In this document: piece by piece, positions 32,195 to 43,535 of the stretch | Layout of the letters: each line of letters opens with the position of its first letter | Numbering within the stretch: position 1 is the first letter of the stretch | Program-made: the position numbers and the translations under genes | NCBI RefSeq assembly: GCF_001294625.1 | Contig: NZ_CP012677.1 | Location: forward strand, 3,982,454 to 4,046,453 | Source: Arthrobacter alpinus | GTDB taxonomy: Bacteria > Actinomycetota > Actinomycetes > Actinomycetales > Micrococcaceae | Direction: 5' to 3' | DNA length: 64,000 bases | The notes under the pieces: generated by a model | What the model was told of the DNA's origin: nothing | The model's database searches: none | The model's input: the letters and a program-made list of their open reading frames with translations, nothing else

Positions 32195-32953
32195 CTACTG
32201 GCTGACGGGGCGCAGGCGCAGGGCCTGCATACCGCCGTCGACGGCGATCGAGGTGCCGGTGGTGGAGCCTGCGAGTGGGCTGGCGAGGTAGGCCACGGCT
32301 CCTGCCACTTCCTCGGCCGTCACCAGGCGCCCGTGGGGTTGGCGGGCGTTCAGGGCGGCACGCTCGGCTACGGGGTCATCCGCCTGATCCATGAGACGGC
32401 CAATCCAGGGGGTGTCGGCTGTGCCGGGGTTTACGGCGTTCACGCGGACGCCATCACGGAGGTGGTCGGCCGCCATCGCCTGGGTTAGGGACAGCACTGC
32501 ACCCTTGGTGGCGGAGTACAGTGCCCGCTGAGGTAAGCCGGCGGTGGCGGCGATGGAGCAGGTGTTCACGATCGCCGCCGCAGAAGACTTGCGCAGGTGC
32601 GGCAGGGCCGCCCGGCTCACCCTGACCATGCCGATGACGTTGATGTCCCAGACCCGTGCCCATTCGGCGTCGTCGTTATCTTCAACGGTGCCCTGCGAGC
32701 CGATGCCGGCGTTGTTGATGACGATGTCGATGCCGCCAAAGGCTGCAACGGTGCCCTCGATCGCTGCCTTGACCGAGGCGTCGTTGGCCACGTCGCAGAC
32801 AAAGCCGAGCTGCCCCTTAGGGAGGTTCGTGGGGTTCAGGTCAAGGACGGCGACCTGGGCGCCCATAGCCTGCAGCATCGCTGCGATGGCCGCACCGATG
32901 CCCGATGCTCCGCCAGTGACAACTGCTGTCAGTGATGAGAATTCTTGGCTCAT
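32195..32953 (-). CDS. SDR dehydrogenase, probable 2-keto-3-deoxy-L-fuconate dehydrogenase
   Basis: A 252-residue classical short-chain dehydrogenase: TGGASGIGAAIA cofactor loop, NNAG, catalytic Ser in NTCSIAATAG and YSATKGAV. Family membership does not fix the substrate. It begins directly after the stop of the FAH-family hydrolase, inside the fucose cluster, where the step lacking an enzyme is oxidation of 2-keto-3-deoxy-L-fuconate to the 2,4-diketo acid. An L-fucose dehydrogenase role is the alternative, but an aldo/keto reductase fills that place. Confidence 0.85.
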   Translation of the reverse strand: MSQEFSSLTAVVTGGASGIGAAIAAMLQAMGAQVAVLDLNPTNLPKGQLGFVCDVANDASVKAAIEGTVAAFGGIDIVINNAGIGSQGTVEDNDDAEWARVWDINVIGMVRVSRAALPHLRKSSAAAIVNTCSIAATAGLPQRALYSATKGAVLSLTQAMAADHLRDGVRVNAVNPGTADTPWIGRLMDQADDPVAERAALNARQPHGRLVTAEEVAGAVAYLASPLAGSTTGTSIAVDGGMQALRLRPVSQ

Positions 32954-33838
32954 TTAGACCTCCTGCGTGGTAGTTGTGGCCCGGAAGAATTCCTGGCGCT
33001 GGCGACCCAGACCGTCAATTTCAATTTCGACAACGTCGCCGTTTTGGATGTAGGGGAAGCGGCCGGAGAGGGCGACGCCTTCGGGCGTGCCGGTCAGGAC
33101 CACGTCCCCGGGTTCGAGCACCATGTACTGGCTTAGGTGGTGGATGATCGTGGGGACGTCGAAGATCAAGTCAGCGGTGCTGGAGTCCTGGCGGGGTTCG
33201 CCGTTGACCCAGCTGCGCAGGCGGAGGTTATTGGTGTCGATCTCGGAGGCAGGCACCAGCCACGGGCCCAGTGGGGTGGACTTGGGCAGTGATTTGCCCT
33301 TGGTCCACTGGCCGGCGGCACCGGGGATTTGGTATTCGCGCTCGGAGAGGTCGTTGGCGATGACGTAGCCGGCCACGGCGGCGGCGGCCTCCGAAACGCT
33401 GGAAAGGTAGCTGACCTCACGGCCGATCACCACGGCGAGTTCCACCTCCCAGTCGTATTTGGCGGCCAGCGGCGGGATCGGTGCCGCGTCGTTGGGGCCG
33501 GCAACGGTGTTGTTCGGTTTCAGGAACACCACCGGAATGGTGGGTGGAAGGGCGCCCGACTCCGCGGCGTGAGCGGCGTAGTTCATGCCGATGCAGATGA
33601 CGTTGTTGGGCCGGACGATGGGGGATCCGACCCGCAGGTTCCGGGCACCCGGAAGCTCGGGAAGTTCCCCGCGTTCGACGGCGGCCGCCAGTTGGGCGAG
33701 CCCGTCGCCGGCGAGGAAGTCACCGGTGATGTCGGCCGTGACTGGGCGGGCGTCATAGACTCGTTCGGCGCCGGTGGAATCAGTGGCCAGCACGGCAGGA
33801 ATTTCCGCACCCTGCGCACCAAGACGTGCAATCTTCAT
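32954..33838 (-). CDS. FAH-family hydrolase, probable 2,4-diketo-3-deoxy-L-fuconate hydrolase
   Basis: A 294-residue fumarylacetoacetate-hydrolase-fold protein with an N-terminal cap. The metal site shows in YDWEVELAVVIGREV, with VICIGMNYAAHAAE before it and GDVVLTGTPEGVAL near the end. In the non-phosphorylating fucose pathway this family splits the diketo acid into pyruvate and L-lactate. GGAGG lies 9-10 bases before the ATG. It is transcribed divergently from the fuconate dehydratase gene, with the shared operator between them, and is followed at once by the SDR gene. Confidence 0.88.
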   Translation of the reverse strand: MKIARLGAQGAEIPAVLATDSTGAERVYDARPVTADITGDFLAGDGLAQLAAAVERGELPELPGARNLRVGSPIVRPNNVICIGMNYAAHAAESGALPPTIPVVFLKPNNTVAGPNDAAPIPPLAAKYDWEVELAVVIGREVSYLSSVSEAAAAVAGYVIANDLSEREYQIPGAAGQWTKGKSLPKSTPLGPWLVPASEIDTNNLRLRSWVNGEPRQDSSTADLIFDVPTIIHHLSQYMVLEPGDVVLTGTPEGVALSGRFPYIQNGDVVEIEIDGLGRQRQEFFRATTTTQEV

Positions 33839-33968
33839 TTATTACTTACCTCCGTGGCCGCCGTGAGGGCGGCCCTAGTGCGTGCCGGGGCCCAACATAG
33901 GTCTTAACATCTGAGCTTTTAGGCAACTTTACCCACAAGTTCGGGCCATTTCAGCAATATTGCTCATA

Positions 33969-33998
33969 TTGACATGTAAAACATCCGATGTTTAGCTT
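33969..33998 (+). promoter_or_regulatory. Promoter and GntR operator of the fucose genes
   Basis: TTGACA (33969-33974) and TAGCTT (33993-33998) with an 18-base spacer. AAACATCCGATGTTT (33979-33993), a near-perfect palindrome, fills the spacer, so a bound repressor would exclude RNA polymerase. Its reverse complement recurs at 38902-38916. It may also control the divergent FAH gene. Confidence 0.8.
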
Positions 33999-34047
33999 GG
34001 AGTAGCTTTTTTGGTTTACCCACAATCTTTCGCAGGGAGCAGCAATC

Positions 34048-35388
34048 GTGAGCATAGTCATCGCCGTGGAGACCAGTGACGTTCGTTTTCCGACGTCGCG
34101 TGAATTGGATGGCTCGGATGCCATGAACCCGGATCCGGACTACTCCGCGGCCTACCTTCGCATTGTCACGGACAGCGGTGACGGCCTTGAAGGGCACGGT
34201 TTCGTGTTCACCATTGGAAGAGGCAATGACGTGGAAACGGCTGCCATCAAGGCGTTGACACCCTATGTTCTTGGCCGCAACGCCGAGGAACTTCTTGCGG
34301 ATATGGGAGCCACCTGGAAAGAGCTGGCCCATGATTCCCAGTTGCGCTGGCTGGGCCCGGAAAAGGGCGTCATGCACATGGCCATCGGCGCCGTCATCAA
34401 CGCGCTGTGGGATCTGAAGGCCAAGCGAGCCGGGTTGCCGTTGTGGCAGCTGCTGGGGCAGATGACGCCGGAGGAGCTTGTTGACCTGGTGGACTTCCGC
34501 TACCTCACGGATGCCCTGACCCGGGACGAGGCCCTGCAAATTCTGCACGCGGCCGAACCCGGTCGCGCGCAGCGGACGGCCACCTTGCTCGCCGAAGGCT
34601 ACCCCGGCTACACCACCACGCCCGGCTGGCTGGGGTACTCGGATGAGAAATTGACGCGACTGGCCCACGAGGCCGTGTCCGCCGGCTTCAAGCAGATCAA
34701 GCTCAAAGTTGGCGCCGACCTTCAGGACGACATCCGCCGCCTGCGTGCGGCTCGTGCCGCCGTCGGGCCGGAGATCTTGATTGCCGTGGATGCCAACCAG
34801 CGTTGGGACGTGGCCGAAGCCATCGAATGGATGGGCCACTTGGCCGAATTCGGCATTGCCTGGATCGAGGAGCCCACCAGCCCGGATGACATCCTGGGCC
34901 ACGCCGCCATTGCCCGGGCTGTGGCGCCAATCCCGGTGGCCACCGGCGAGCACGTGCAAAACCGTGTGGTGTTCAAGCAAATGCTTCAGGCCGATGCGCT
35001 CCAGGTCCTGCAAATCGACGCCTCCCGGGTGGCCGGCGTCAACGAGAACGTGGCGATCCTGCTACTTGCGGCCAAGTTCGGCGTTCGGGTCTGCCCGCAT
35101 GCCGGAGGCGTGGGGTTGTGCGAGGCCGTGCAGCACCTGTCCATGTTTGACTTTGTGGCGGTGTCGGGGACCAAGGAGGGCCGCATGATTGAATTTGTGG
35201 ACCACCTGCACGAGCACTTCGTCACACCGATTGACGTCCACGACGGCTGCTACTTCCCGCCCACAACACCCGGCGGCGGCAGCGAAATGCATACGGCCTC
35301 CATCGCCGAATTCACTTTCCCCGATGGTGGCTTCTGGCTGGCGGATGCGCAGACAAGGCAGGTACAAGACGTGGAAGTAGCGGTTTAG
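34048..35388 (+). CDS. L-fuconate dehydratase (enolase superfamily)
   Basis: A 446-residue mandelate-racemase-type enzyme. Its start ([20 protein letters not shown], then [18 protein letters not shown]) is characteristic of L-fuconate dehydratases. The catalytic lysine pair is in [10 protein letters not shown], metal ligands follow in [19 protein letters not shown] and TGEHVQNR, and the histidine base in CPHAGGVGL. It removes water from L-fuconate to give 2-keto-3-deoxy-L-fuconate. GTG 34048 has AGGGAG upstream. It is the first gene of a plus-strand operon running through to the lactonase. Confidence 0.93.
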
Positions 35389-35392
35389 GGCA

Positions 35393-36709
35393 ATGCCACA
35401 GCAAGTTCACGTAGACCACGCGCTTTGGTTCACCGAGGCACGTTTTGGCATGTTTGTGCACTGGGGCTTGTATTCCTTGGCGGCCCGGCACGAGTGGGTG
35501 AAGTACCAGGAGGAAATATCCAACCAGGAGTACCAAAAATACTTTGAGCACTTTGACCCGGATCTCTACGACCCCCGGGAGTGGGCGGCAGCTGCCAAAA
35601 AGGCTGGCATGAAGTACGTGGTGCTGACCACCAAGCACCACGACGGATTCTGCCTGTGGGATTCCGCCTTGACGGACTACAAGGCCAGCAACACCCCCTA
35701 CGGCAAGGACCTGTTGACACCCTACGTCGAGGCGCTGCGCGAGGCGGGTCTGAAGGTGGGCTTCTACCACTCGGTCATCGACTGGCAGCATCCGGACTTC
35801 GCCATCGACGGCAACCACTCCGAGCGGAACAACCCGGCCGCCGTGGAATTGAACAAGACCCGCGACGGCGGCAACTACCGTGCGTACCTGCACGGCCAGG
35901 TCCGCGAACTGCTGACCAACTACGGGAAGATCGATTACCTGTTCTTCGACTTCTCCTACCCCACCGTCGACGGCGCGGCGTCGGCCGGGACAACGTTCCC
36001 CGGCAAGGGCCGCAAGGATTGGGGCTCGGCGGAACTGCTGGGCATGATCCGGGACTTGCAACCCGGCATCGTGGTCAACGACCGCCTGGATGTTCCCGGA
36101 GACTTTGTCACCCCAGAGCAGTACCAGCCCGCTGGCGCCATGTTCAGCGGGGGCAAACAAGTGCCGTGGGAGGCCTGTCAGACGCTTAACGGAAGCTGGG
36201 GCTATGACCGGGACAACCTCGACTACAAGTCTGCTGACCTGCTGGTGAGGATGCTCATTGACGGGGTGTCCAAGGGCGGAAACCTGCTGCTCAACGTCGG
36301 CCCTACGGCTCGTGGCGAGATCGATTCGCGCGCCCACGGCGCCCTTGACGGCATGGGGGAGTGGATGCGTGTCCACGGCAGATCAATCTACGGCGCGGGG
36401 GCCGCCGCTGCGGTGCCGCCGCAGGACGGGCGGTACACTCGCCGCGGCGACCGGCTGTACCTGCACCTTTTTGCCTGGCCGTTCCAGTTTGTGCACCTGC
36501 CGGCGCTGGCGGGCAAGGTCCGCTATGCGCAGTTGCTCAACGACGCCTCAGAGGTGGCCATGATGATCCTTGGCCCGGGCCAGGCCGCAGGGCACATGAC
36601 CCCTGCCGGCCAGGACGCCGGGACCTTGACGCTGAAGCTTCCTGTGCAACGGCCCAATGTGGCCGTGCCCGTGATTGAACTGTTCCTCAATGAAGAAGGT
36701 GAGATCTGA
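35393..36709 (+). CDS. GH29 alpha-L-fucosidase, intracellular
   Basis: A 438-residue glycoside hydrolase of family 29. Landmarks are WFTEARFGMFVHWGLYSL, YVVLTTKHHDGFCLWDS, the nucleophile region KIDYLFFDFSYP (about residue 185), IVVNDR and VPWEACQTLNGSWGY. There is no signal peptide, so it must act on fucosylated sugars already brought into the cell. It starts 4 bases after the dehydratase stop and its stop shares a base with the mutarotase start. The released L-fucose would feed the enzymes encoded alongside. Confidence 0.93.
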   Translation: MPQQVHVDHALWFTEARFGMFVHWGLYSLAARHEWVKYQEEISNQEYQKYFEHFDPDLYDPREWAAAAKKAGMKYVVLTTKHHDGFCLWDSALTDYKASNTPYGKDLLTPYVEALREAGLKVGFYHSVIDWQHPDFAIDGNHSERNNPAAVELNKTRDGGNYRAYLHGQVRELLTNYGKIDYLFFDFSYPTVDGAASAGTTFPGKGRKDWGSAELLGMIRDLQPGIVVNDRLDVPGDFVTPEQYQPAGAMFSGGKQVPWEACQTLNGSWGYDRDNLDYKSADLLVRMLIDGVSKGGNLLLNVGPTARGEIDSRAHGALDGMGEWMRVHGRSIYGAGAAAAVPPQDGRYTRRGDRLYLHLFAWPFQFVHLPALAGKVRYAQLLNDASEVAMMILGPGQAAGHMTPAGQDAGTLTLKLPVQRPNVAVPVIELFLNEEGEI

Positions 36710-37020
36710 TGCACAAGATCGCCCTGCACACCCGACTCAAGGCGGGGAAAGAGGCAGAATACGATTCCGTCCACTCCACCATCAGTGACGAGCTTGACGC
36801 TGCCCTGCGCACCGCCGGCGTGCACCACTGGAACATCTGGCGCAGCGGCCGGGAACTCTTCCACGTCGTCGAGGTGGATGACTACCAGGCAATGCGCAAG
36901 GAACTCGCCACCAACCCCGTGAACATCGTCTGGCAGTCCGTCATGGCCGAGTTGCTCGAGGTTGCGGACGACTACTCCGGCGATGACATGGGCTTGGCGA
37001 AAGTGTGGGAACTGCCATGA
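36709..37020 (+). CDS. L-rhamnose/L-fucose mutarotase-family protein
   Basis: A 103-residue protein of the L-rhamnose mutarotase (RhaM, DUF718) family: HTRLKAGKEAEYDSVHSTISDEL, HHWNIWRSGRELFHVVEVDDY and a C-terminal MGLAKVWEL. These enzymes speed exchange of sugar anomers. Here it most likely serves L-fucose, giving the form used by the dehydrogenase. It is coupled on both sides by overlapping start and stop codons. Confidence 0.9.
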   Translation: MHKIALHTRLKAGKEAEYDSVHSTISDELDAALRTAGVHHWNIWRSGRELFHVVEVDDYQAMRKELATNPVNIVWQSVMAELLEVADDYSGDDMGLAKVWELP

Positions 37021-37985
37021 GTGTTCCGGAACTGGGCCGGCTGGGCTTCGGTGCCGCGGGCATCGGCAATTTGTATCGGGCCATGGACGATGCCGTTGCT
37101 ACCGCCACCATCGCGGCCGCCTGGGACACGGGCATCAGGTACTTTGACACGGCACCCCACTACGGGCTGGGCCTGTCAGAGCGCCGTGTGGGCGCCTTCT
37201 TGGCCACGAAACCCCGCAATGAGTTTGTTATTTCCACCAAGGTGGGGCGCATCCTGGAGCCGGCGTTCAACCCGTCGGGGGCCAGGGACGCCGAAGGCTT
37301 CGATGTTCCAGCGGACGCCGTGCGCCGCTGGGACCCTTCCGAAGCCGGCATCCGCCGCAGCCTTGAGGACTCCCTGACACGGCTGGGCCTGGACCGCATC
37401 GACATCGCCTACTTGCACGACCCCGACGTCTACGACCTGGAAGCCGGAATCAGTCAGGCCCTGCCGGCGCTGGAAAAGCTGCGCGCCGAGGGCCTGGTCG
37501 GGGCCATCGGTGTGGGAGCCAACTCCGCCCACGCGCTGCGCGAGTGCGTGCAGGCCGCGGACCTGGACCTGATCATGCTCGCCGGACGCTACACCCTGCT
37601 GGAACAGCCTGCCGCCGCCGCTCTGCTGCCCCTGTGCGCCGAACGTGGCGTGGGCGTGGCCAATTGCGGCGCCTTCAACTCCGGACTCCTGGCCCGGCCG
37701 GTGGTCCCGGCGGATGCGCACTACAACTACGAGCCCGCCCCGGCCGCCATTGTGGCCCGTGCCAGGGCGCTCGCTGCCTGCTGCGAGGAATTTGGTGTGG
37801 AACTGCCGACGGCGGCACTTCATTTTGCCGCCAACCATCCCGTCGTGCGCACAGTGGTTGTGGGCGCGAGCCGCCCCGAACAAATTACACAAAGTGCACA
37901 ACGCATGTCGACGCCGGTCCCGGCAGGGTTGTGGAACGAAATGGTCGACCGCGGGCTGCTTGCGGGGGAGCTCGTCCATGGCTAA
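37017..37985 (+). CDS. Aldo/keto reductase, probable L-fucose 1-dehydrogenase
   Basis: A 322-residue aldo/keto reductase: LGFGAAGIGNLY, the Asp and Tyr of the active site in YFDTAPHYGLGLSER, the Lys in ISTKVGR, and TVVVGASRPEQI at the cofactor end. It resembles D-threo-aldose (L-fucose) 1-dehydrogenases, which oxidise L-fucose to the lactone. ATG 37017 overlaps the mutarotase stop (ATGA) and is preferred over the GTG at 37005. The position between mutarotase and lactonase fits the assignment. Confidence 0.88.
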   Translation: MSVPELGRLGFGAAGIGNLYRAMDDAVATATIAAAWDTGIRYFDTAPHYGLGLSERRVGAFLATKPRNEFVISTKVGRILEPAFNPSGARDAEGFDVPADAVRRWDPSEAGIRRSLEDSLTRLGLDRIDIAYLHDPDVYDLEAGISQALPALEKLRAEGLVGAIGVGANSAHALRECVQAADLDLIMLAGRYTLLEQPAAAALLPLCAERGVGVANCGAFNSGLLARPVVPADAHYNYEPAPAAIVARARALAACCEEFGVELPTAALHFAANHPVVRTVVVGASRPEQITQSAQRMSTPVPAGLWNEMVDRGLLAGELVHG

Positions 37986-38892
37986 GACGCCCGCACCGGC
38001 CACCGCTGTGCCGACCACCGCTGTGGTGGGCCGGACGCCTCAGACGGGCAACGGCGTCGTCCGCCTGGATTCCCACCTGCACCTGTGGGAGTTGGGGGAG
38101 GGCATGTATTCCTGGCTAAATCCTGAATTGGGGCCGCTCTACAACACCTTTACGGCGGGGCAGTCCCGGGAAACACTGGCTGGTGCGGGGGTTCGGCGCG
38201 CCATCCTGGTGCAGGCGGATGACACCGCCGCGGATACCGTGGCCATGCTGGAAAACGCTGCGGAGAACGATTTCATCGCCGGCGTGGTGGGCTGGCTGCC
38301 GCTGGAAGATCCTGCAGCCGGGGCCTCTTTGTTGGAGAAATGGTTGGCACAGCCCAAGTTTTGTGGCGTGCGGACCTTGATCCATGACGATCCGCGCCCG
38401 AATGTGCTGGATCTTGCCCCGGTGCGGGAGTCCCTGCGCATGCTGGCACGGGCAGGGCTGCCCTTCGACGTGCCGGACGCGTTCCCCCGGCATCTGGGGC
38501 AGGTGGCGGCCCTTGCCGCCGAGTTGCCCGGGCTGACGGTGGTGCTGGACCACCTGGGCAAGCCGCCGCGGGCCGGAACGCCTGACGAGTTAGCGCACTG
38601 GGAGCGGGAATTCCGGGCTGTGGCTGCCCTGCCCAACACCGTGGCCAAGCTGTCCGGGCTGCATTGCCCCGGTGCAGAATTCAGCGCGCAGGCGTTGGAG
38701 AGGGTCTGGGACATTGCCTTGGACGCCTTCGGGCCGCAGCGGCTCATGTTTGGCGGGGACTGGCCCGTGAGCCTGCTCGGGGCAGACTACGCGCGATGCG
38801 TTCAGGTGGTGGCAGCCCTGCTTGAGCCCTTGAGCGGCACCGAAGCCGCTGACATTTGGTCGGGCACCGCTGAGCGGATTTACCTCCGATAA
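37978..38892 (+). CDS. Amidohydrolase-family L-fuconolactonase
   Basis: A 304-residue TIM-barrel amidohydrolase of the amidohydrolase-2 type, as found in sugar lactonases. LDSHLHLWELGEGMYSWL is the N-terminal metal motif, VVLDHLGKPP the central histidine and MFGGDWPVSLLGA the terminal aspartate. It would open L-fucono-lactone to L-fuconate. ATG 37978 overlaps the dehydrogenase gene by 8 bases; the open frame continues upstream without biological meaning. The first 30 residues (Ala/Thr/Pro-rich) look disordered and may mean that a later start is used. Confidence 0.9.
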   Translation: MAKTPAPATAVPTTAVVGRTPQTGNGVVRLDSHLHLWELGEGMYSWLNPELGPLYNTFTAGQSRETLAGAGVRRAILVQADDTAADTVAMLENAAENDFIAGVVGWLPLEDPAAGASLLEKWLAQPKFCGVRTLIHDDPRPNVLDLAPVRESLRMLARAGLPFDVPDAFPRHLGQVAALAAELPGLTVVLDHLGKPPRAGTPDELAHWEREFRAVAALPNTVAKLSGLHCPGAEFSAQALERVWDIALDAFGPQRLMFGGDWPVSLLGADYARCVQVVAALLEPLSGTEAADIWSGTAERIYLR

Positions 38893-38901
38893 CCTTTTCG
38901 T

Positions 38902-38916
38902 AAACATCGGATGTTT
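38902..38916. promoter_or_regulatory. GntR operator before the fucose importer
   Basis: AAACATCGGATGTTT is the exact reverse complement of the operator at 33979-33993. It lies 10 bases after the lactonase stop and about 200 bases before the importer genes. A TAAAAT box at 38922-38927 could be the -10 element, but no good -35 is seen. Confidence 0.75.
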
Positions 38917-39073
38917 TAGCGTAAAATATCTATCTTTGTGTCGTGGATAACATACCATGGGGTAAGTTCCGTTGCTCCAATGGTGGAATCGGATCCACGT
39001 GAATACCGACGTTACGGTAATATTCAAACAATTTGTCAGACTTTGGCGCTCGGGGAACCGCTTCGCCAAGAGG

Positions 39074-39085
39074 TCTGACGTCAGA
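39074..39085. promoter_or_regulatory. Perfect 12-base palindrome upstream of the importer
   Basis: TCTGACGTCAGA lies 28 bases before the ATG of the ATPase gene. TTGGCG/CGCCAA pairing just upstream could form a hairpin. It could be a second operator (for example for a LacI-type or catabolite regulator). No such regulator is encoded in the window. Confidence 0.4.
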
Positions 39086-39113
39086 TCTCATTAATAACGC
39101 TTGAGAGGGCAGT

Positions 39114-40646
39114 ATGAGCAACCATCTTCTTCGCATGAGCGGGGTGAACAAGAGTTTCCCTGGCGTCAAGGCACTGTCAGAGATGCAGCTGGATCTGGGA
39201 TACAACGAGGTTCTGGCCCTGGTGGGCGAGAACGGTGCCGGCAAGTCAACCCTCATGAAACTGCTCTCCGGCATCTATGTCCCTGACTCCGGCAAGTTTG
39301 AAATTGACGGCGAAGAGGTCGCTATTGCGGGCACTAAGCATGCTCAGGAACTGGGTATCAGCATCATCCACCAGGAATTCAACCTGATGCAGGACCTGAC
39401 GGTGGCCCAGAACATCTACATCGGCCGCGAACCCCGTCTTGGCGGCATGTTCCTCAGTGAACGCAGGCTCAACCGCAAGGCCGCATTCTTGTTCGAGAAG
39501 ATCAACATCGATCTGGACCCGAAGGCCCGTGTGGGAGACCTAACAGTTGCCAAGCAGCAGATGGTCGAAATAGCGAAGGCACTCTCCTACAAGTCACGCA
39601 TCCTGATCATGGATGAGCCGACCGCTGCGTTGAACGACGCTGAAGTGGCCACCTTGCACGATCTCATCCGGAACTTCACCAGCGAAAAAACCGGTGTCAT
39701 CTACATCTCGCACCGAATGGATGAGCTCAAAGCCATCTCCAACCGCATCAGCGTCATACGCGACGGCGAATACATCGACACCGTCAACACCGCCGAAACC
39801 AGCATGGCCGAGGTCATAAACTTGATGGTTGGCCGGGAAATCTCCGGAAACCAGCGTCCGGAAGCAATCCCACACACCAGCGACGTCGTCTTGAAGGTGA
39901 CCGGGCTCTGCACCAAAGATCTCCTGGACAATGTCAGCTTTGAGCTGCGTAAGGGGGAAATTTTGGGTTTTGCCGGCCTCATGGGTGCCGGCCGGACCGA
40001 GGTGGCTCGCGCCATCGTGGGAGCTGACCGTATTAGCTCAGGATCCATTGAGCTAAACGGTTCCCCGGTGACCATTGGAAATCCGGCCATCGCCGCCAAC
40101 CTGGGCCTTGGGTACCTCTCGGAAGACCGCAAACATCTTGGGCTGATGCTCGAACGCGACGTCAAGGACAACATTGCTCTGAGCTCGCTGAAGATGTTTA
40201 GCCGCATGGGTGTCCTGGATAACCGGGCCATGAAAGCCACGGCAACCGAATACATTGACAAGCTGCGCATCAAGACGCCCTCAAGTGCCCAAGCGGCCAA
40301 GAACCTCTCGGGCGGCAACCAGCAAAAGATCGTCATTGCCAAATGGCTCGTCAAGGACTGCGACGTCCTCATCTTTGATGAGCCCACCCGCGGCATCGAC
40401 GTAGGTGCCAAGGAAGAGATCTACACACTCCTGAACGACCTGGCGGCGCAAGGGAAGTCCATCATCATGATCTCCTCAGAACTGCCCGAGGTCCTGCGGC
40501 TTTCACACCGCATCGCCGTGATGTGCGAGGGGCGGCTCACCGGATTCCTTTCCAACGCCGAGGCCAACCAGGCAAACATCATGGCCTTGGCTACGCAAAG
40601 TACTGAAGATGCCACCGCCAGCAACCGTGCCAGCGCGCAGCGCTAA
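39114..40646 (+). CDS. Sugar ABC transporter ATPase, RbsA/XylG type
   Basis: A 510-residue protein with two ABC modules. The first has VGENGAGKSTLMKLLSG and LIMDEPTAALNDAEV; the second has the typical altered P-loop GLMGAGRTEVARAI, NLSGGNQQKIVIAKWL and IFDEPTRGIDVGAKEEI. This is the monosaccharide (ribose/xylose) importer form. It is the first gene of the importer operon, with GAGGG 5-6 bases before ATG 39114. The likely cargo is L-fucose or a small fucosylated sugar. Confidence 0.93.
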   Translation: MSNHLLRMSGVNKSFPGVKALSEMQLDLGYNEVLALVGENGAGKSTLMKLLSGIYVPDSGKFEIDGEEVAIAGTKHAQELGISIIHQEFNLMQDLTVAQNIYIGREPRLGGMFLSERRLNRKAAFLFEKINIDLDPKARVGDLTVAKQQMVEIAKALSYKSRILIMDEPTAALNDAEVATLHDLIRNFTSEKTGVIYISHRMDELKAISNRISVIRDGEYIDTVNTAETSMAEVINLMVGREISGNQRPEAIPHTSDVVLKVTGLCTKDLLDNVSFELRKGEILGFAGLMGAGRTEVARAIVGADRISSGSIELNGSPVTIGNPAIAANLGLGYLSEDRKHLGLMLERDVKDNIALSSLKMFSRMGVLDNRAMKATATEYIDKLRIKTPSSAQAAKNLSGGNQQKIVIAKWLVKDCDVLIFDEPTRGIDVGAKEEIYTLLNDLAAQGKSIIMISSELPEVLRLSHRIAVMCEGRLTGFLSNAEANQANIMALATQSTEDATASNRASAQR

Positions 40647-40674
40647 ACCAAGACAAGAAAGTGAAGGCTAAGAC

Positions 40675-41697
40675 ATGACCTTGGTAAAGGACACTGCGCA
40701 AACTAGCAAGATTGCCAGTGACAAGAAATCAGAAATGGCAACCCGAATCCGGGCCAGCTTCCAGCAGTTGTTGGCATTTGCAAGTTTGTTGGCCCTTGTG
40801 GTGTTCTTCTCTGTCGCCAGCGAGAACTTCTATCAAGCCGGCAACCTCTCCAACATCCTGCTCTCCACCGTAGTGACAGGCCTGTTGGCGCTGGGCACCA
40901 CGTTTGTCATCATCACCGGTGGCATCGACCTGTCCATCGGTACGGGCATGACGCTTTGCTCGGTCATGACGGCCTGGTTCATGACTCAACTGGGGCTGCC
41001 CATGATCCTGGGCGTGCTGGCCGGCGTGGCCTTCGGTGCCCTCATCGGCAGTGTCAACGGTTTCTTTGTTGCAGTGCTGAAAATCCCGTCCTTTATTGCC
41101 ACACTGGCCATGATGATGGTGGCCGCAGGATTAGCGCTTGTCATTTCCGGCACCAAACCGATCTACACCAATGAGGTGCCAGGCTTCCAGAAGATCTTCG
41201 CCCTGGGCAAATCCATTCCCGGATTGGTCATCCCCAACGCCGTGTTTATCCTGTTCGCTGCAGCCATCATTGCCGGCCTGATCTTGTCCAAGACAGTCCT
41301 TGGACGCTACACCTACTCTATTGGCAGCAACGAGCAGGCCACAGCCCTCTCCGGTGTGAACGTGACCAAGTGGACAGTGCTGATCTACACCCTGGCAGGT
41401 TCCTTCACCGGCCTGGCTGGCGTCATCGCCACGGCCCGCTTGAACTCGGCCCAGCCAGCAGGTGGCATGGGCCTGGAGCTTCAGGCGATTGCCGCCGTCG
41501 TTATTGGCGGAACCTCCCTGCAAGGCGGCAAGGGCTCAATCATCGGCACAGTGATTGGTGCGCTGATCATGTCCGTTCTGACCAACGGACTCACCCTCAT
41601 GTCCATCCCGCAGGAGTGGCAGCAGGTGGCCGTGGGCGTGGTCATCATTCTCGCCGTTTACCTGGACATGATGCGTCGCAAAAAGACCGCCAAATAG
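40675..41697 (+). CDS. Sugar ABC transporter permease, RbsC type
   Basis: A 340-residue permease with about ten helices. Typical family features are the GTTFVIITGGIDLSIGTGMTL segment, the loop GRYTYSIGSNEQATALSGVNV, and VVIGGTSLQGGKGSIIGTVIG. It has a 30-residue hydrophilic N-terminus. It lies 28 bases after the ATPase gene and before the binding protein, the usual order in such importers. Confidence 0.93.
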   Translation: MTLVKDTAQTSKIASDKKSEMATRIRASFQQLLAFASLLALVVFFSVASENFYQAGNLSNILLSTVVTGLLALGTTFVIITGGIDLSIGTGMTLCSVMTAWFMTQLGLPMILGVLAGVAFGALIGSVNGFFVAVLKIPSFIATLAMMMVAAGLALVISGTKPIYTNEVPGFQKIFALGKSIPGLVIPNAVFILFAAAIIAGLILSKTVLGRYTYSIGSNEQATALSGVNVTKWTVLIYTLAGSFTGLAGVIATARLNSAQPAGGMGLELQAIAAVVIGGTSLQGGKGSIIGTVIGALIMSVLTNGLTLMSIPQEWQQVAVGVVIILAVYLDMMRRKKTAK

Positions 41698-41771
41698 ACT
41701 TTCCAGCCGCATTTCCCAGCACTGCCGAAACCCATTTAGCCAAAGCGTTCTCACAAAGGAGTAAGAAAATC

Positions 41772-42746
41772 ATGCAAAGAAGAAAATTCCTCTCACTGGC
41801 CTCCATCGCTGCACTGTCCCTGAGCGTTGCTGCCTGCGATACCCCGGCAGCAACCCAGGATGCCGCGGCCGGCAAGAAGCCGTACATCGCCATTGTTTCC
41901 AAGGGCTTCCAGCACCAGTTCTGGCAGTCTGTGAAGCAGGGCGCCGAGAACGCGGCGAAGGAATTCAACGTTGATATCTCCTTTGAGGGCCCGGACAAGG
42001 AAACCAACGTTTCCCAGCAGATGGACCAGCTGAACAACGCCATGGCCAAGAACCCGCAGGCCCTGGCCCTGGCGGCACTTGACTCGAAGGCCGCCGAGGG
42101 CGTGCTGCAGGAGGCCAAGGGCAAGAACATCCCCGTCATCGCCTTTGACTCCGGCGTGGACTCCACCGTCCCCGTCGCCACCGCATCCACGGACAATAAG
42201 GCGGCCGCCGCTGAGGCTGCCAAACACATGGCGGAGCTGTTGGGCAACAAGGGCGACATCGCCATCATCGGCCACTCGCAGACGGCGACCTCCGGCACCG
42301 ATCGTCGCGATGGCTTTGTTGACTACTTGAAGAAGAATGCGCCGGACATCAAGGTCGTTGACATCCAGTACGCCGATGGCGACCAGGCCAAGTCCACGGA
42401 TGCGGCTAAGGCCATTATGACCGCCTATCCGAACCTTGCCGGCGTGTACGGCACCAACGAGGGTGCCGCCATCGGCGTTGTCAACGCTGTCAAAGAAGCG
42501 GGCAAGTCCGGCAAGCTCATCATCGTCGGCTTCGACTCCGGCAAGGCCCAGATGGACGCTATCAAGGAGGGCCTCATGTCCGGGGCCGTCACCCAGAACC
42601 CCGTGGGCATCGGCTACGAAACCGTCAAGGCCGCCGTCGCCGCCATCAAGGGAGAGAAGGTGGAGAAGGTTATCGACACCGGCTTCTACTGGTACGACAA
42701 GGCCAACATCGCAGATCCCAAGATCGCTGCGAACCTCTACGAGTAG
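41772..42746 (+). CDS. Sugar-binding lipoprotein, RbsB type
   Basis: A 324-residue type I periplasmic-binding protein. The signal peptide MQRRKFLSLASIAALSLSV ends in the lipobox VAACD. The mature part has YIAIVSKGFQHQFWQSVKQGAENAA, DQLNNAMAKNPQALALAALDS, VIAFDSGVDS and GYETVKAAVAAI, as in ribose/xylose/galactose binding proteins. AAGGAG is 8-9 bases before ATG 41772; the longer open frame upstream overlaps the permease and is not used. It completes the fucose-cluster importer. Confidence 0.93.
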   Translation: MQRRKFLSLASIAALSLSVAACDTPAATQDAAAGKKPYIAIVSKGFQHQFWQSVKQGAENAAKEFNVDISFEGPDKETNVSQQMDQLNNAMAKNPQALALAALDSKAAEGVLQEAKGKNIPVIAFDSGVDSTVPVATASTDNKAAAAEAAKHMAELLGNKGDIAIIGHSQTATSGTDRRDGFVDYLKKNAPDIKVVDIQYADGDQAKSTDAAKAIMTAYPNLAGVYGTNEGAAIGVVNAVKEAGKSGKLIIVGFDSGKAQMDAIKEGLMSGAVTQNPVGIGYETVKAAVAAIKGEKVEKVIDTGFYWYDKANIADPKIAANLYE

Positions 42747-42773
42747 GATTCGCGCTAAGGTCGGGGCCGTTGT

Positions 42774-42815
42774 GGAAGGCCGGGGGCCGTTGTGGTGATT
42801 CGCCCCCGGCCTTCC
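42774..42815. terminator. Palindrome between the binding protein and gntR genes (14-bp arms)
   Basis: The arms GGAAGGCCGGGGGC (42774-42787) and its complement (42802-42815) enclose a 14-base loop. A partial direct repeat, GGGGCCGTTGTGG, occurs twice at its left side. It lies between converging genes; no T-tract. Confidence 0.7.
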
Positions 42816-42837
42816 CCGGATCTGAAAGAGGCCGCTG

Positions 42838-43509
42838 CTAGAGTGCCTGGCGCAGCCACTGCTCCACCCCGCTGATGTGGACGGTGAGGAGGGCCTTGGC
42901 CAACTCTGCGTCGCCACGTTCCAAGGCCTCGATGATGGCTGTGTGTTCGGCAAGCGTACGGTCAACGGCTTTTTCCTGAGTCAGGCCGCGCCAGATGCGT
43001 GCTCGGACAGTGCTGCTGGAGAGTCCATCCAAAACACTTGTCAGGTAGGAATTATTTGCCGCAGTGGCGATCAGGCCGTGGAAGACAAGGTCGTGCTCCA
43101 CGAGCGACTCGACGCTGGTGTCATCGCCAATGTTCTCCATGGTGGCGCGCAGCTCGGTAATCTCCTCGGGCGATATCCGCCCTGCCGCCATCGCAGCTGC
43201 GGCCGGTTCCAGGATGCGGCGCACCTCAAAAATGTCCAGGATCGACTTGTCCTGGTGCAGGTCCACAATGAATGCCATGGCCTCGGTGAGCAGCTTGGGC
43301 TCCAGGCTGGTGACGTACGTGCCGTCCCCGCGGCGAACATCTAGTACGCGGATGATTTCCAGGGCCTTTACGGCCTCGCGTAGTGAGCTACGGGAGAGGC
43401 CGAGTTTTTCGCTCAGTTCCTTCTCAGGCGGGAGCCTGTCTCCGGCTGACAGCTCGCCGGAGATGATCATGTCCTTGATCTTGGTGATTGCTTCGTCTGT
43501 AACGGCCAT
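42838..43509 (-). CDS. GntR-family (FCD) regulator of the fucose cluster
   Basis: A 223-residue repressor: winged helix RLPPEKELSEKLGLSRSSLREAVKALEIIRVLDVRRGDGTYV, then an FCD domain with FEVRRILEPAAAAMAA, EHDLVFHGLIATAANN, LAEHTAIIEAL and the closing VHISGVEQWL. It is convergent with the importer. The region before its start holds TCGGATGTTT, a half-match to the two operators of the cluster, so weak autoregulation is likely. L-fuconate or a later intermediate would be the expected inducer. Confidence 0.9.
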   Translation of the reverse strand: MAVTDEAITKIKDMIISGELSAGDRLPPEKELSEKLGLSRSSLREAVKALEIIRVLDVRRGDGTYVTSLEPKLLTEAMAFIVDLHQDKSILDIFEVRRILEPAAAAMAAGRISPEEITELRATMENIGDDTSVESLVEHDLVFHGLIATAANNSYLTSVLDGLSSSTVRARIWRGLTQEKAVDRTLAEHTAIIEALERGDAELAKALLTVHISGVEQWLRQAL

Positions 43510-43520
43510 GAATCAATTCT

Positions 43521-43535
43521 ATTGGTCGGATGTTT
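43521..43535 (-). promoter_or_regulatory. Half-conserved GntR operator before gntR
   Basis: ATTGGTCGGATGTTT keeps the right ten bases (TCGGATGTTT) of AAACATCGGATGTTT. It lies 12 bases upstream of the GntR start codon. Confidence 0.55.

What the first reader, a model, noticed from the sequence alone, without database searches (positions are those of the whole stretch)
32195..43509. Complete non-phosphorylating L-fucose pathway with importer, fucosidase and regulator in one block
Every step from a fucosylated sugar to pyruvate and L-lactate has a candidate: GH29 fucosidase, mutarotase, aldo/keto-reductase dehydrogenase, lactonase, fuconate dehydratase, SDR dehydrogenase and FAH hydrolase, plus a ribose-type importer and a GntR/FCD repressor. 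The dehydratase N-terminus and active-site residues are seen directly; the pathway order is established for Xanthomonas. Assignment of the SDR, reductase and importer is by context. The fucosidase lacks a signal peptide, so fucosyl-oligosaccharides may be imported whole.
Basis: partly seen in the sequence, partly recalled or inferred. Interest (0 to 1): 0.75.

Follow-up and report, generated by a model that had tools for sequence, protein, structure and literature searches.

The report
Arthrobacter L-fucose catabolic gene block
An Arthrobacter chromosome carries one compact gene block that should import L-fucose, free it from small fucosides and oxidise it to pyruvate and L-lactate; the pathway is already known from other bacteria, and the new part is a conserved set of likely repressor binding sites that marks the block.

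Summary
Window 32195-43509 encodes candidates for every enzyme of the non-phosphorylating ("route 3") L-fucose pathway, plus a GH29 fucosidase, a ribose-type (CUT2) ABC importer and a GntR/FCD regulator. The key assignment is strong: the dehydratase is 69% identical to Xanthomonas L-fuconate dehydratase, with seven of seven checked residues kept. The SDR fits a described L-2-keto-3-deoxyfuconate dehydrogenase type at three of four positions. Lactonase, mutarotase and FAH hydrolase match their families; the aldo/keto reductase and importer rest mainly on context. No fucose isomerase domain was found.

What I add is the likely control circuit. A palindrome, AACATCNGATGTT, lies in the fucD promoter spacer in 21 of 21 genus loci. 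It recurs before the importer (16 of 16, 0-1 mismatch) and, degenerate, before the regulator gene (18 of 18). A second, imperfect site, where found (34 of 49 loci), lies 74 or 63-64 bp away, one helical turn apart. In one relative the palindrome lies between a GH95 and a GH29 fucosidase gene.

Verdict: a new member of a known kind. Regulator-operator pairing, inducer and importer ligand are predictions. Import of whole fucosyl-oligosaccharides is not supported by a CUT2 importer.

The parts
32195..32953 (-). fucF-like SDR, L-2-keto-3-deoxyfuconate 4-dehydrogenase candidate (252 aa)
   Evidence: SDR family; best solved relative 4DQX, 171 bits, named as close to type 2 L-KDFDH in PMC11199699; R143, T178, R204 at the R-T-x-R positions, L187 (with R186 beside it) at the third; D38 in VLDLNP suggests NAD+
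32954..33838 (-). fucG-like FAH-family 2,4-diketo-3-deoxyfuconate hydrolase candidate (294 aa)
   Evidence: PF01557; best NCBIfam 2,4-didehydro-3-deoxy-L-rhamnonate hydrolase, 224 of 500 bits; among solved proteins 1gtt 192 bits, then 8gsr L-2,4-diketo-3-deoxyrhamnonate hydrolase 173 bits
33906..33918 (.). O2, imperfect operator AACATCTGAGCTT, 74 bp from O1
   Evidence: at 74 bp in 20 of 21 genus loci, 64 bp in the other
33969..33998 (+). fucD promoter: -35 TTGACA 33969-33974, 18-bp spacer, -10-like TAGCTT 33993-33998
   Evidence: TTGACA unchanged in 21 of 21 aligned intergenic regions; not reported by the sigma-70 consensus scan
33980..33992 (.). O1, palindromic operator AACATCCGATGTT inside the promoter spacer
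34048..35388 (+). fucD, L-fuconate dehydratase (446 aa, GTG start)
   Evidence: 298 of 434 aligned residues identical to 2HXT; seven checked residues kept
35393..36709 (+). GH29 alpha-L-fucosidase without visible signal peptide (438 aa)
   Evidence: PF01120, 302 bits, from residue 11; best solved relative 6gn6, 398 bits; catalytic residues not checked
36709..37020 (+). RhaM-family mutarotase, fucM-like (103 aa)
   Evidence: PF05336; start overlaps the GH29 stop
37017..37985 (+). aldo/keto reductase, L-fucose 1-dehydrogenase candidate (322 aa)
   Evidence: PF00248; nearest solved relatives L-galactose dehydrogenases, best 119 bits; neighbour of fucD in 20 of 20 genus stretches
37978..38892 (+). 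L-fucono-1,5-lactonase candidate (304 aa)
   Evidence: PF04909; sole NCBIfam match L-fucono-1,5-lactonase, 185 of 400 bits; best solved relative 4dlf, 123 bits
38903..38915 (.). O3, operator AACATCGGATGTT before the importer
   Evidence: 0-1 mismatch in 16 of 16 genus loci with the importer beside fucD
39114..40646 (+). CUT2 importer ATPase, RbsA type (510 aa)
   Evidence: best NCBIfam RbsA, 549 of 745 bits
40675..41697 (+). CUT2 importer permease (340 aa)
   Evidence: PF02653
41772..42746 (+). sugar-binding lipoprotein (324 aa)
   Evidence: PF13407; closest chains 4kqc, 4rxt; present in 16 of 21 fucD-bearing genus genomes and 0 of 2 others
42838..43509 (-). GntR/FCD regulator, here called FucR (223 aa)
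   Evidence: PF00392 and PF07729; D140, H144, H189, H211 as in metal-binding FCD domains
43521..43535 (-). O4, degenerate operator AAACATCCGACCAAT before fucR
   Evidence: its like aligned in 18 of 18 genus loci that hold the gene

Best explanation
This is an Arthrobacter fuc locus for the non-phosphorylating route 3 of L-fucose breakdown. Free L-fucose enters by the CUT2 ABC importer; small fucosides that reach the cytoplasm are cut by the GH29 enzyme. The mutarotase supplies the right anomer. The AKR oxidises L-fucose to the 1,5-lactone, the lactonase opens it to L-fuconate, FucD dehydrates that to L-2-keto-3-deoxyfuconate, the SDR oxidises C4 with NAD+, and the FAH hydrolase cleaves the product to pyruvate and L-lactate. 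The FCD regulator represses the fucD operon, the divergent FAH-SDR operon, the importer and its own gene by binding a palindrome; at fucD that site lies in the promoter spacer and would block RNA polymerase. An acid intermediate (L-fuconate or L-2-keto-3-deoxyfuconate) bound at the FCD metal site is the likely inducer. Shown by sequence: gene content, order, families, FucD active site, operator conservation. Inferred: AKR substrate, SDR and hydrolase specificity, importer ligand, repressor-operator pairing, inducer.
For: FucD identity and residues. SDR and the type 2 L-KDFDH pattern. Lactonase, FAH and mutarotase families. Six enzyme genes in one order in 20 of 20 genus stretches. No fucose isomerase domain in the genome (control found it in E. 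coli and two others). Operator: 21 of 21 at fucD, 16 of 16 at the importer, 18 of 18 degenerate at fucR; all 27 perfect copies in 522 kb of loci lie before fucD (21), the importer (5) or a fucosidase pair (1). In 290 genomes of the window's family, 41 of 44 promoter-operator matches lie just before a fucD hit, and the reversed control pattern gave none. A site in a relative lies between GH95 and GH29 genes.
Against: No wet data. The AKR has no NCBIfam match over its cut-off and its best solved kin act on L-galactose. The lactonase and FAH hits are under the NCBIfam cut-offs. The third arginine position of the SDR is Leu. Enolase-type L-fuconate dehydratases also take D-arabinonate (PMC6336799, passage). 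Five of 20 genus stretches keep the enzymes but not this importer, and three of 20 do not show the regulator. In the own genome, at up to one mismatch, the palindrome has 3 places and its reversed control 2. More distant lactonase homologues are mostly not beside fucD.
Confidence: 0.88

Rival explanations
1. The block serves D-arabinose or L-galactose (same stereochemistry at C2-C4) rather than L-fucose, yielding pyruvate with glycolate or glycerate.
For: Enolase-type L-fuconate dehydratases act on D-arabinonate too (PMC6336799 passage); the AKR is nearest to L-galactose dehydrogenases among solved structures.
Against: A GH29 fucosidase gene sits within the operon in 19 of 20 genus stretches; the operator also lies between GH95 and GH29 genes in a relative. 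In P. mimosarum the D-arabinose and L-fucose clusters were each induced only by their own sugar (PMC6336799 passage).
Confidence: 0.08
2. The importer brings in a fucosyl-oligosaccharide or a fucoside, and free L-fucose is only an intracellular intermediate.
For: Fucosidase without visible signal peptide; only one GH29 and no GH95 N-terminal domain in the genome, so no secreted fucosidase of these two families was seen. Other fucosidase families were not searched.
Against: The importer is of the ribose (CUT2) type, known for monosaccharides. One genus stretch lacks GH29 yet keeps the importer (L124). The candidate fucoside system of a relative has PF00528 permeases instead.
Confidence: 0.07
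3. The palindrome is the site of another regulator, and the FCD protein is only a neighbour.
For: Its best NCBIfam match is LldR (111 of 311 bits), and the palindrome lacks the TKGT/ACMA boxes given as common consensus of FadR-type sites (PMC4494728 passages). The fucR upstream site is degenerate. The regulator was not seen in three of 20 stretches that keep O1.
Against: It is the only regulator gene in the block, and a conserved half-site lies before it in 18 of 18 genus loci.
Confidence: 0.15

Closest known systems
Non-phosphorylating L-fucose pathway, route 3 (Xanthomonas campestris, Herbaspirillum huttiense, Acidovorax avenae)
   Same: The same steps as in the introduction of PMC11199699: mutarotase, 1-dehydrogenase, lactonase, dehydratase, SDR 4-dehydrogenase, diketo hydrolase. 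FucD is 69% identical to the Xanthomonas enzyme.
   Different: Joined here with a GH29 fucosidase, a CUT2 importer and an FCD regulator; the SDR resembles type 2, not the H. huttiense type 1 enzyme. That Xanthomonas uses an AKR for the first step is recalled; in Burkholderia multivorans FucA is an SDR.
Bifidobacterium fucose pathway (B. kashiwanohense, B. infantis)
   Same: Actinobacterial fucose use; fuconate dehydratase is named in these papers (search listing).
   Different: Ends in 1,2-propanediol by the title of PMC7732495 (search listing); here the SDR and FAH pair points to pyruvate and L-lactate.
Metal-binding FCD repressors (LldR, TM0439, PS5454, DgoR)
   Same: GntR wHTH plus FCD; D140, H144, H189, H211, with 22 residues between the last two His as in TM0439 and PS5454.
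   Different: Operator AACATCNGATGTT instead of TKGT/ACMA boxes; a second site at 74 or 63-64 bp in many loci.

Membership tests
Route 3 non-phosphorylating L-fucose locus | enolase-type L-fuconate dehydratase with its catalytic residues | tested here: met
   the residue numbers of Xanthomonas FucD are recalled
Route 3 non-phosphorylating L-fucose locus | L-KDF 4-dehydrogenase of the SDR family with the arginine pattern | tested here: inconclusive
   R143-T178-L187-R204 against R-T-Y-R of type 2; the third position varies between types
Route 3 non-phosphorylating L-fucose locus | FAH-family diketo hydrolase beside the SDR | tested here: met
   PF01557 over the cut-off; closest function-level model, the rhamnonate enzyme, under its cut-off
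Route 3 non-phosphorylating L-fucose locus | dehydrogenase and lactonase for free L-fucose | tested here: inconclusive
   lactonase 185 of 400 bits; AKR by context and L-galactose dehydrogenase kin
Route 3 non-phosphorylating L-fucose locus | growth on L-fucose dependent on the locus | not testable with these tools
   needs a strain
Route 1 (aldolase) L-fucose pathway | L-KDF aldolase in the genome | not tested
   none among the eleven genes of the block; the genome was not searched for it
Phosphorylating L-fucose pathway | L-fucose isomerase FucI | tested here: not met
   no PF07881 match in the genome; control found it in 3 of 14 genomes, E. coli among them
GntR, FCD subfamily | GntR wHTH and FCD domain over the Pfam cut-offs | tested here: met
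GntR, FCD subfamily | three His and an Asp for the metal | tested here: met
   by residues and spacing only, no structure
CUT2 sugar importer | RbsA-type double ATPase, PF02653 permease, PF13407 binding protein | tested here: met
GH29 fucosidase | catalytic domain over the Pfam cut-off | tested here: met
GH29 fucosidase | catalytic nucleophile and acid/base | not tested
   no alignment to a solved GH29 was printed

The most novel reading that the evidence does not exclude
FucR represses by bridging two operators on the same face of the DNA: O1 in the fucD promoter and O2 towards the divergent FAH-SDR promoter. The spacing is 74, 64 or 63 bp (7 or 6 helical turns) in 34 of 49 loci, and O2 was found at no other distance in the 21-140 bp searched; the fucD tree needs at least three switches between the two classes. 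It would be a compact looping or cooperative FCD switch that couples the two arms of one pathway and, in relatives, adds further fucosidases.
Probability: 0.35. Interest if true: 0.55.

Novelty: new member of a known kind. Interest (0 to 1): 0.36.

Why it matters
It gives soil Arthrobacter and its relatives a complete, testable L-fucose pathway and a clear operator by which the fucose regulon can be sought in genomes of the family. It predicts importer ligand and inducer, and the phased operator pair is a simple case in which to test bridging by a small FCD repressor.

Tried and rejected
The 74/63-64 bp spacing could be mere inheritance; at least three switches on the tree argue against that, but the tree was a quick one with 19 of 44 inner forks open. 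The O2 consensus was taken from the genus loci, so its presence there at few mismatches is partly by construction; the spacing is not. Fifteen of 49 loci have no second site at up to 2 mismatches; among the loci, three (L149, L159, L161) have a 3-mismatch candidate at 64 bp, which I did not count.

A structure model of the binding protein was made to look for its sugar. Its confidence was low (mean pLDDT 59.4, eight sequences), so no fold search was run.

The first family-wide operator pattern had the wrong gap; it is used only for two sites, in G205 and G030, which are one base shorter. The corrected search is.

A one-mismatch operator elsewhere in the genome (position 118680) lies near no pathway gene by eye; since the reversed control gave two such places, I leave it as chance. 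The G188 site lies near no match to the block's proteins in the 3 kb held. The importer homologues of L014 and L017, which lie elsewhere in those loci at 55-63% identity and run to the end of the stretch, showed no site. The consensus scan found one promoter-like site where 2.2 were expected and did not report the fucD promoter, whose -10 is TAGCTT.

FMN-dependent dehydrogenase hits for lactate use were weak and partial; I drew nothing from them. The lactonase-centred loci (80 best of 233) were used for L004-L017; of the other 66, only L054 showed a fucD of at least 50% identity, so distant lactonase homologues mostly serve elsewhere.

Loci without O2 were left out of the switch count.
Full report
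WHAT IS THERE. The window is the last 64 kb of a single-contig genome of 4.05 Mb. The closest named loci are Arthrobacter, so I take the genome to be of that genus. Between 32195 and 43509 lie eleven intact genes. On the minus strand are an SDR and an FAH-family hydrolase. Divergent from them, on the plus strand, are fucD, a GH29 fucosidase, a RhaM-family mutarotase, an aldo/keto reductase and an amidohydrolase-type lactonase, with starts that closely follow or overlap the preceding stops. Then follow a CUT2 ATPase, permease and binding lipoprotein, and on the minus strand a GntR/FCD regulator. A tRNA-Ser lies just beyond.

FUNCTION, STEP BY STEP. FucD is identical to Xanthomonas L-fuconate dehydratase 2HXT at 298 of 434 aligned residues, and K218, K220, D248, E274, E301, D324 and H351 are all kept (the choice of residues is recalled). 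The SDR's best solved relative is 4DQX. PMC11199699 (passages, section 10, introduction) places type 2 L-2-keto-3-deoxyfuconate dehydrogenases close to that structure; their pattern is R-T-Y-R, and here it is R143-T178-L187-R204, with R186 beside the third place. The lactonase has one NCBIfam match, L-fucono-1,5-lactonase, at 185 of 400 bits. The FAH hydrolase is nearest to 1gtt (192 bits) and to the diketo-deoxyrhamnonate hydrolase 8gsr (173 bits) among solved proteins; PMC11199699 says that the rhamnose and fucose routes share the intermediate this hydrolase cleaves. The AKR is the least certain enzyme: its nearest solved kin are L-galactose dehydrogenases, best 119 bits. The genome has no match to a fucose isomerase domain, one GH29 and no match to a GH95 N-terminal domain.

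CONSERVATION. Twenty-one of 23 genus genomes, the own one included, have a fucD at 84% identity or more. In 20 fetched stretches of the others, SDR, FAH, fucD, mutarotase, AKR and lactonase are present in 20 of 20, GH29 in 19, the importer in 15 and the regulator in 17. The binding protein occurs in 16 of 23 genus genomes: 16 of the 21 with fucD and neither of the 2 without. Among the named loci, L004-L017 carry FAH, fucD, AKR and lactonase in 14 of 14; at E 1e-8, GH29 beside them is missing in L005, L014 and L017 and the SDR and mutarotase in L013.

THE OPERATOR. AACATCNGATGTT occurs twice without mismatch in the genome, at the fucD and importer promoters, and once with one mismatch elsewhere; the reversed control has two places at up to one mismatch. 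In the aligned FAH-fucD intergenic regions of 21 genus loci, TTGACA and the palindrome are unchanged apart from the palindrome's middle base. The site lies in an 18-bp promoter spacer. Five more distant named loci (L013-L017) have it with one mismatch, 5 of 5. The importer has the site at 0 (5 loci) or 1 mismatch (11 loci), 16 of 16 genus loci with the importer beside fucD. fucR has AAACATCNGACCA in 17 of 18 and AAACGTCTGACCA in one. In that pair, read in L006, the site lies between a GH95 gene and a GH29 gene followed by an oxidoreductase and two PF00528 permeases.

FAMILY-WIDE TEST. A pattern of -35 box plus operator, up to 1 mismatch, gave 44 matches in 43 of 290 genomes of the family and none for the reversed control. 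Forty-one of the 44 lie within 250 bp before a fucD hit. Of the other three, the G235 site lies between AKR and FAH homologues. The second G226 site lies about 1.8 kb from that genome's main site, just outside the stretch held, on the side of a regulator and a lactonase homologue. G188 has no match to the block. Of the 77 fucD hits, 25 of 26 at 80% identity or more and 16 of 20 at 69-79% have the site; 0 of 31 below 69% do. Two of the four lacking it at 69-79%, G205 and G030, have a version one base shorter. The lower group is a contrast: in 12 fetched stretches of those 31 hits, five show fucD without AKR, lactonase, FAH or SDR homologues (L179-L182, L187), three show it with FAH and SDR only (L183-L185), and four have an AKR (L186, L188-L190), three of these with a lactonase homologue too. 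So complete-looking loci without this operator exist in the family. In L184 fucD sits with a TRAP transporter, which fits sugar-acid uptake.

THE PAIRED SITES. A second site, AACATCNGAGCTT at up to 2 mismatches, was sought 21-140 bp upstream of the first. It was found in 34 of 49 loci, at 74 bp (22), 64 bp (9) or 63 bp (3), and at no other distance. Parsimony on a fucD tree needs at least three changes between the 74 and 63-64 classes. The two classes differ by about one helical turn. That one regulator bridges both sites is inference; looping has been proposed for a tetrameric FCD repressor in PMC7797058 (passages). Separate control of the two divergent promoters is the plain alternative.

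REGULATOR AND INDUCER. FucR has D140, H144, H189 and H211. Published sites use three His with an Asp or Asn in LldR, TM0439 and PS5454 (PMC7797058 passages; PMC7674646 passages); DgoR is described with a different set, D146, H150 and H195, and binds D-galactonate. Metal-bearing FCD domains of DgoR and CitO (citrate; abstract in the listing) bind acids, so an acid intermediate is the likely inducer; this is inference.

WHAT IS KNOWN. Route 3 is established. PMC5507952 (passages) shows L-fucose loci with predicted FucR sites in bacteria of a microbial mat, and PMC12263773 (passages) reports the pathway in an acidimicrobial actinobacterium. Four searches listed no paper whose title or abstract start names this locus or operator: fucose with Arthrobacter and fuconate (one paper), with Actinobacteria, regulon and GntR (six papers), with Micrococcaceae (12 of 85 papers listed) and with FucR and GntR family (11 papers). 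Only open-licence papers are held, and I did not read these texts apart from passages of PMC5507952, PMC12263773 and PMC13387620. PMC13387620 (passages) reports L-fucose use for one of six new Arthrobacter species and none for the other five, so the trait varies in the genus.

VERDICT. The finding is real and mostly rightly read. It is a new member of a known kind; the regulatory circuit is the new part.

Noticed in passing
L012 (NZ_JADHDY010000003.1): A record titled Sporosarcina beigongshangi REN13 carries this locus at Arthrobacter-like identity and 65% GC; a contig of the same length (377059) is held as G014 in the window's own genus, so the record's name is probably wrong.
   Followed up: partly
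L006:12802-20874: In A. silviterrae the palindrome (15715) lies between a GH95 gene and a GH29-oxidoreductase-PF00528 permease operon, a candidate fucoside uptake system.
   Followed up: partly
L007:15701-20151: A 1448-codon frame with a GH29 domain and weak F5/8 matches has two one-mismatch operator sites at or before its 5' end (20025, 20151); possibly a secreted fucosidase under the same regulator.
   Followed up: partly
L135 (G074:C28:13891-13915): A two-mismatch match to the mis-gapped pattern lies shortly before a GH29-like frame (32% over 214 residues).
   Followed up: no
L184:4290-11409: A fucD-like gene (60%) with SDR, FAH, TRAP transporter and Ldh_2 dehydrogenase: probably a sugar-acid uptake version of the pathway.
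   Followed up: partly
window:43611-43699: A tRNA-Ser gene abuts the fucR end of the block; whether the block entered beside the tRNA was not examined.
   Followed up: no
window:29843-32047: By eye a RecQ-type helicase with a phosphoribosyltransferase-like C-terminus lies next to the SDR gene.
   Followed up: no
L153 (G188:C2:69180-69205): A one-mismatch promoter-operator match with no match to the block's proteins nearby.
   Followed up: partly
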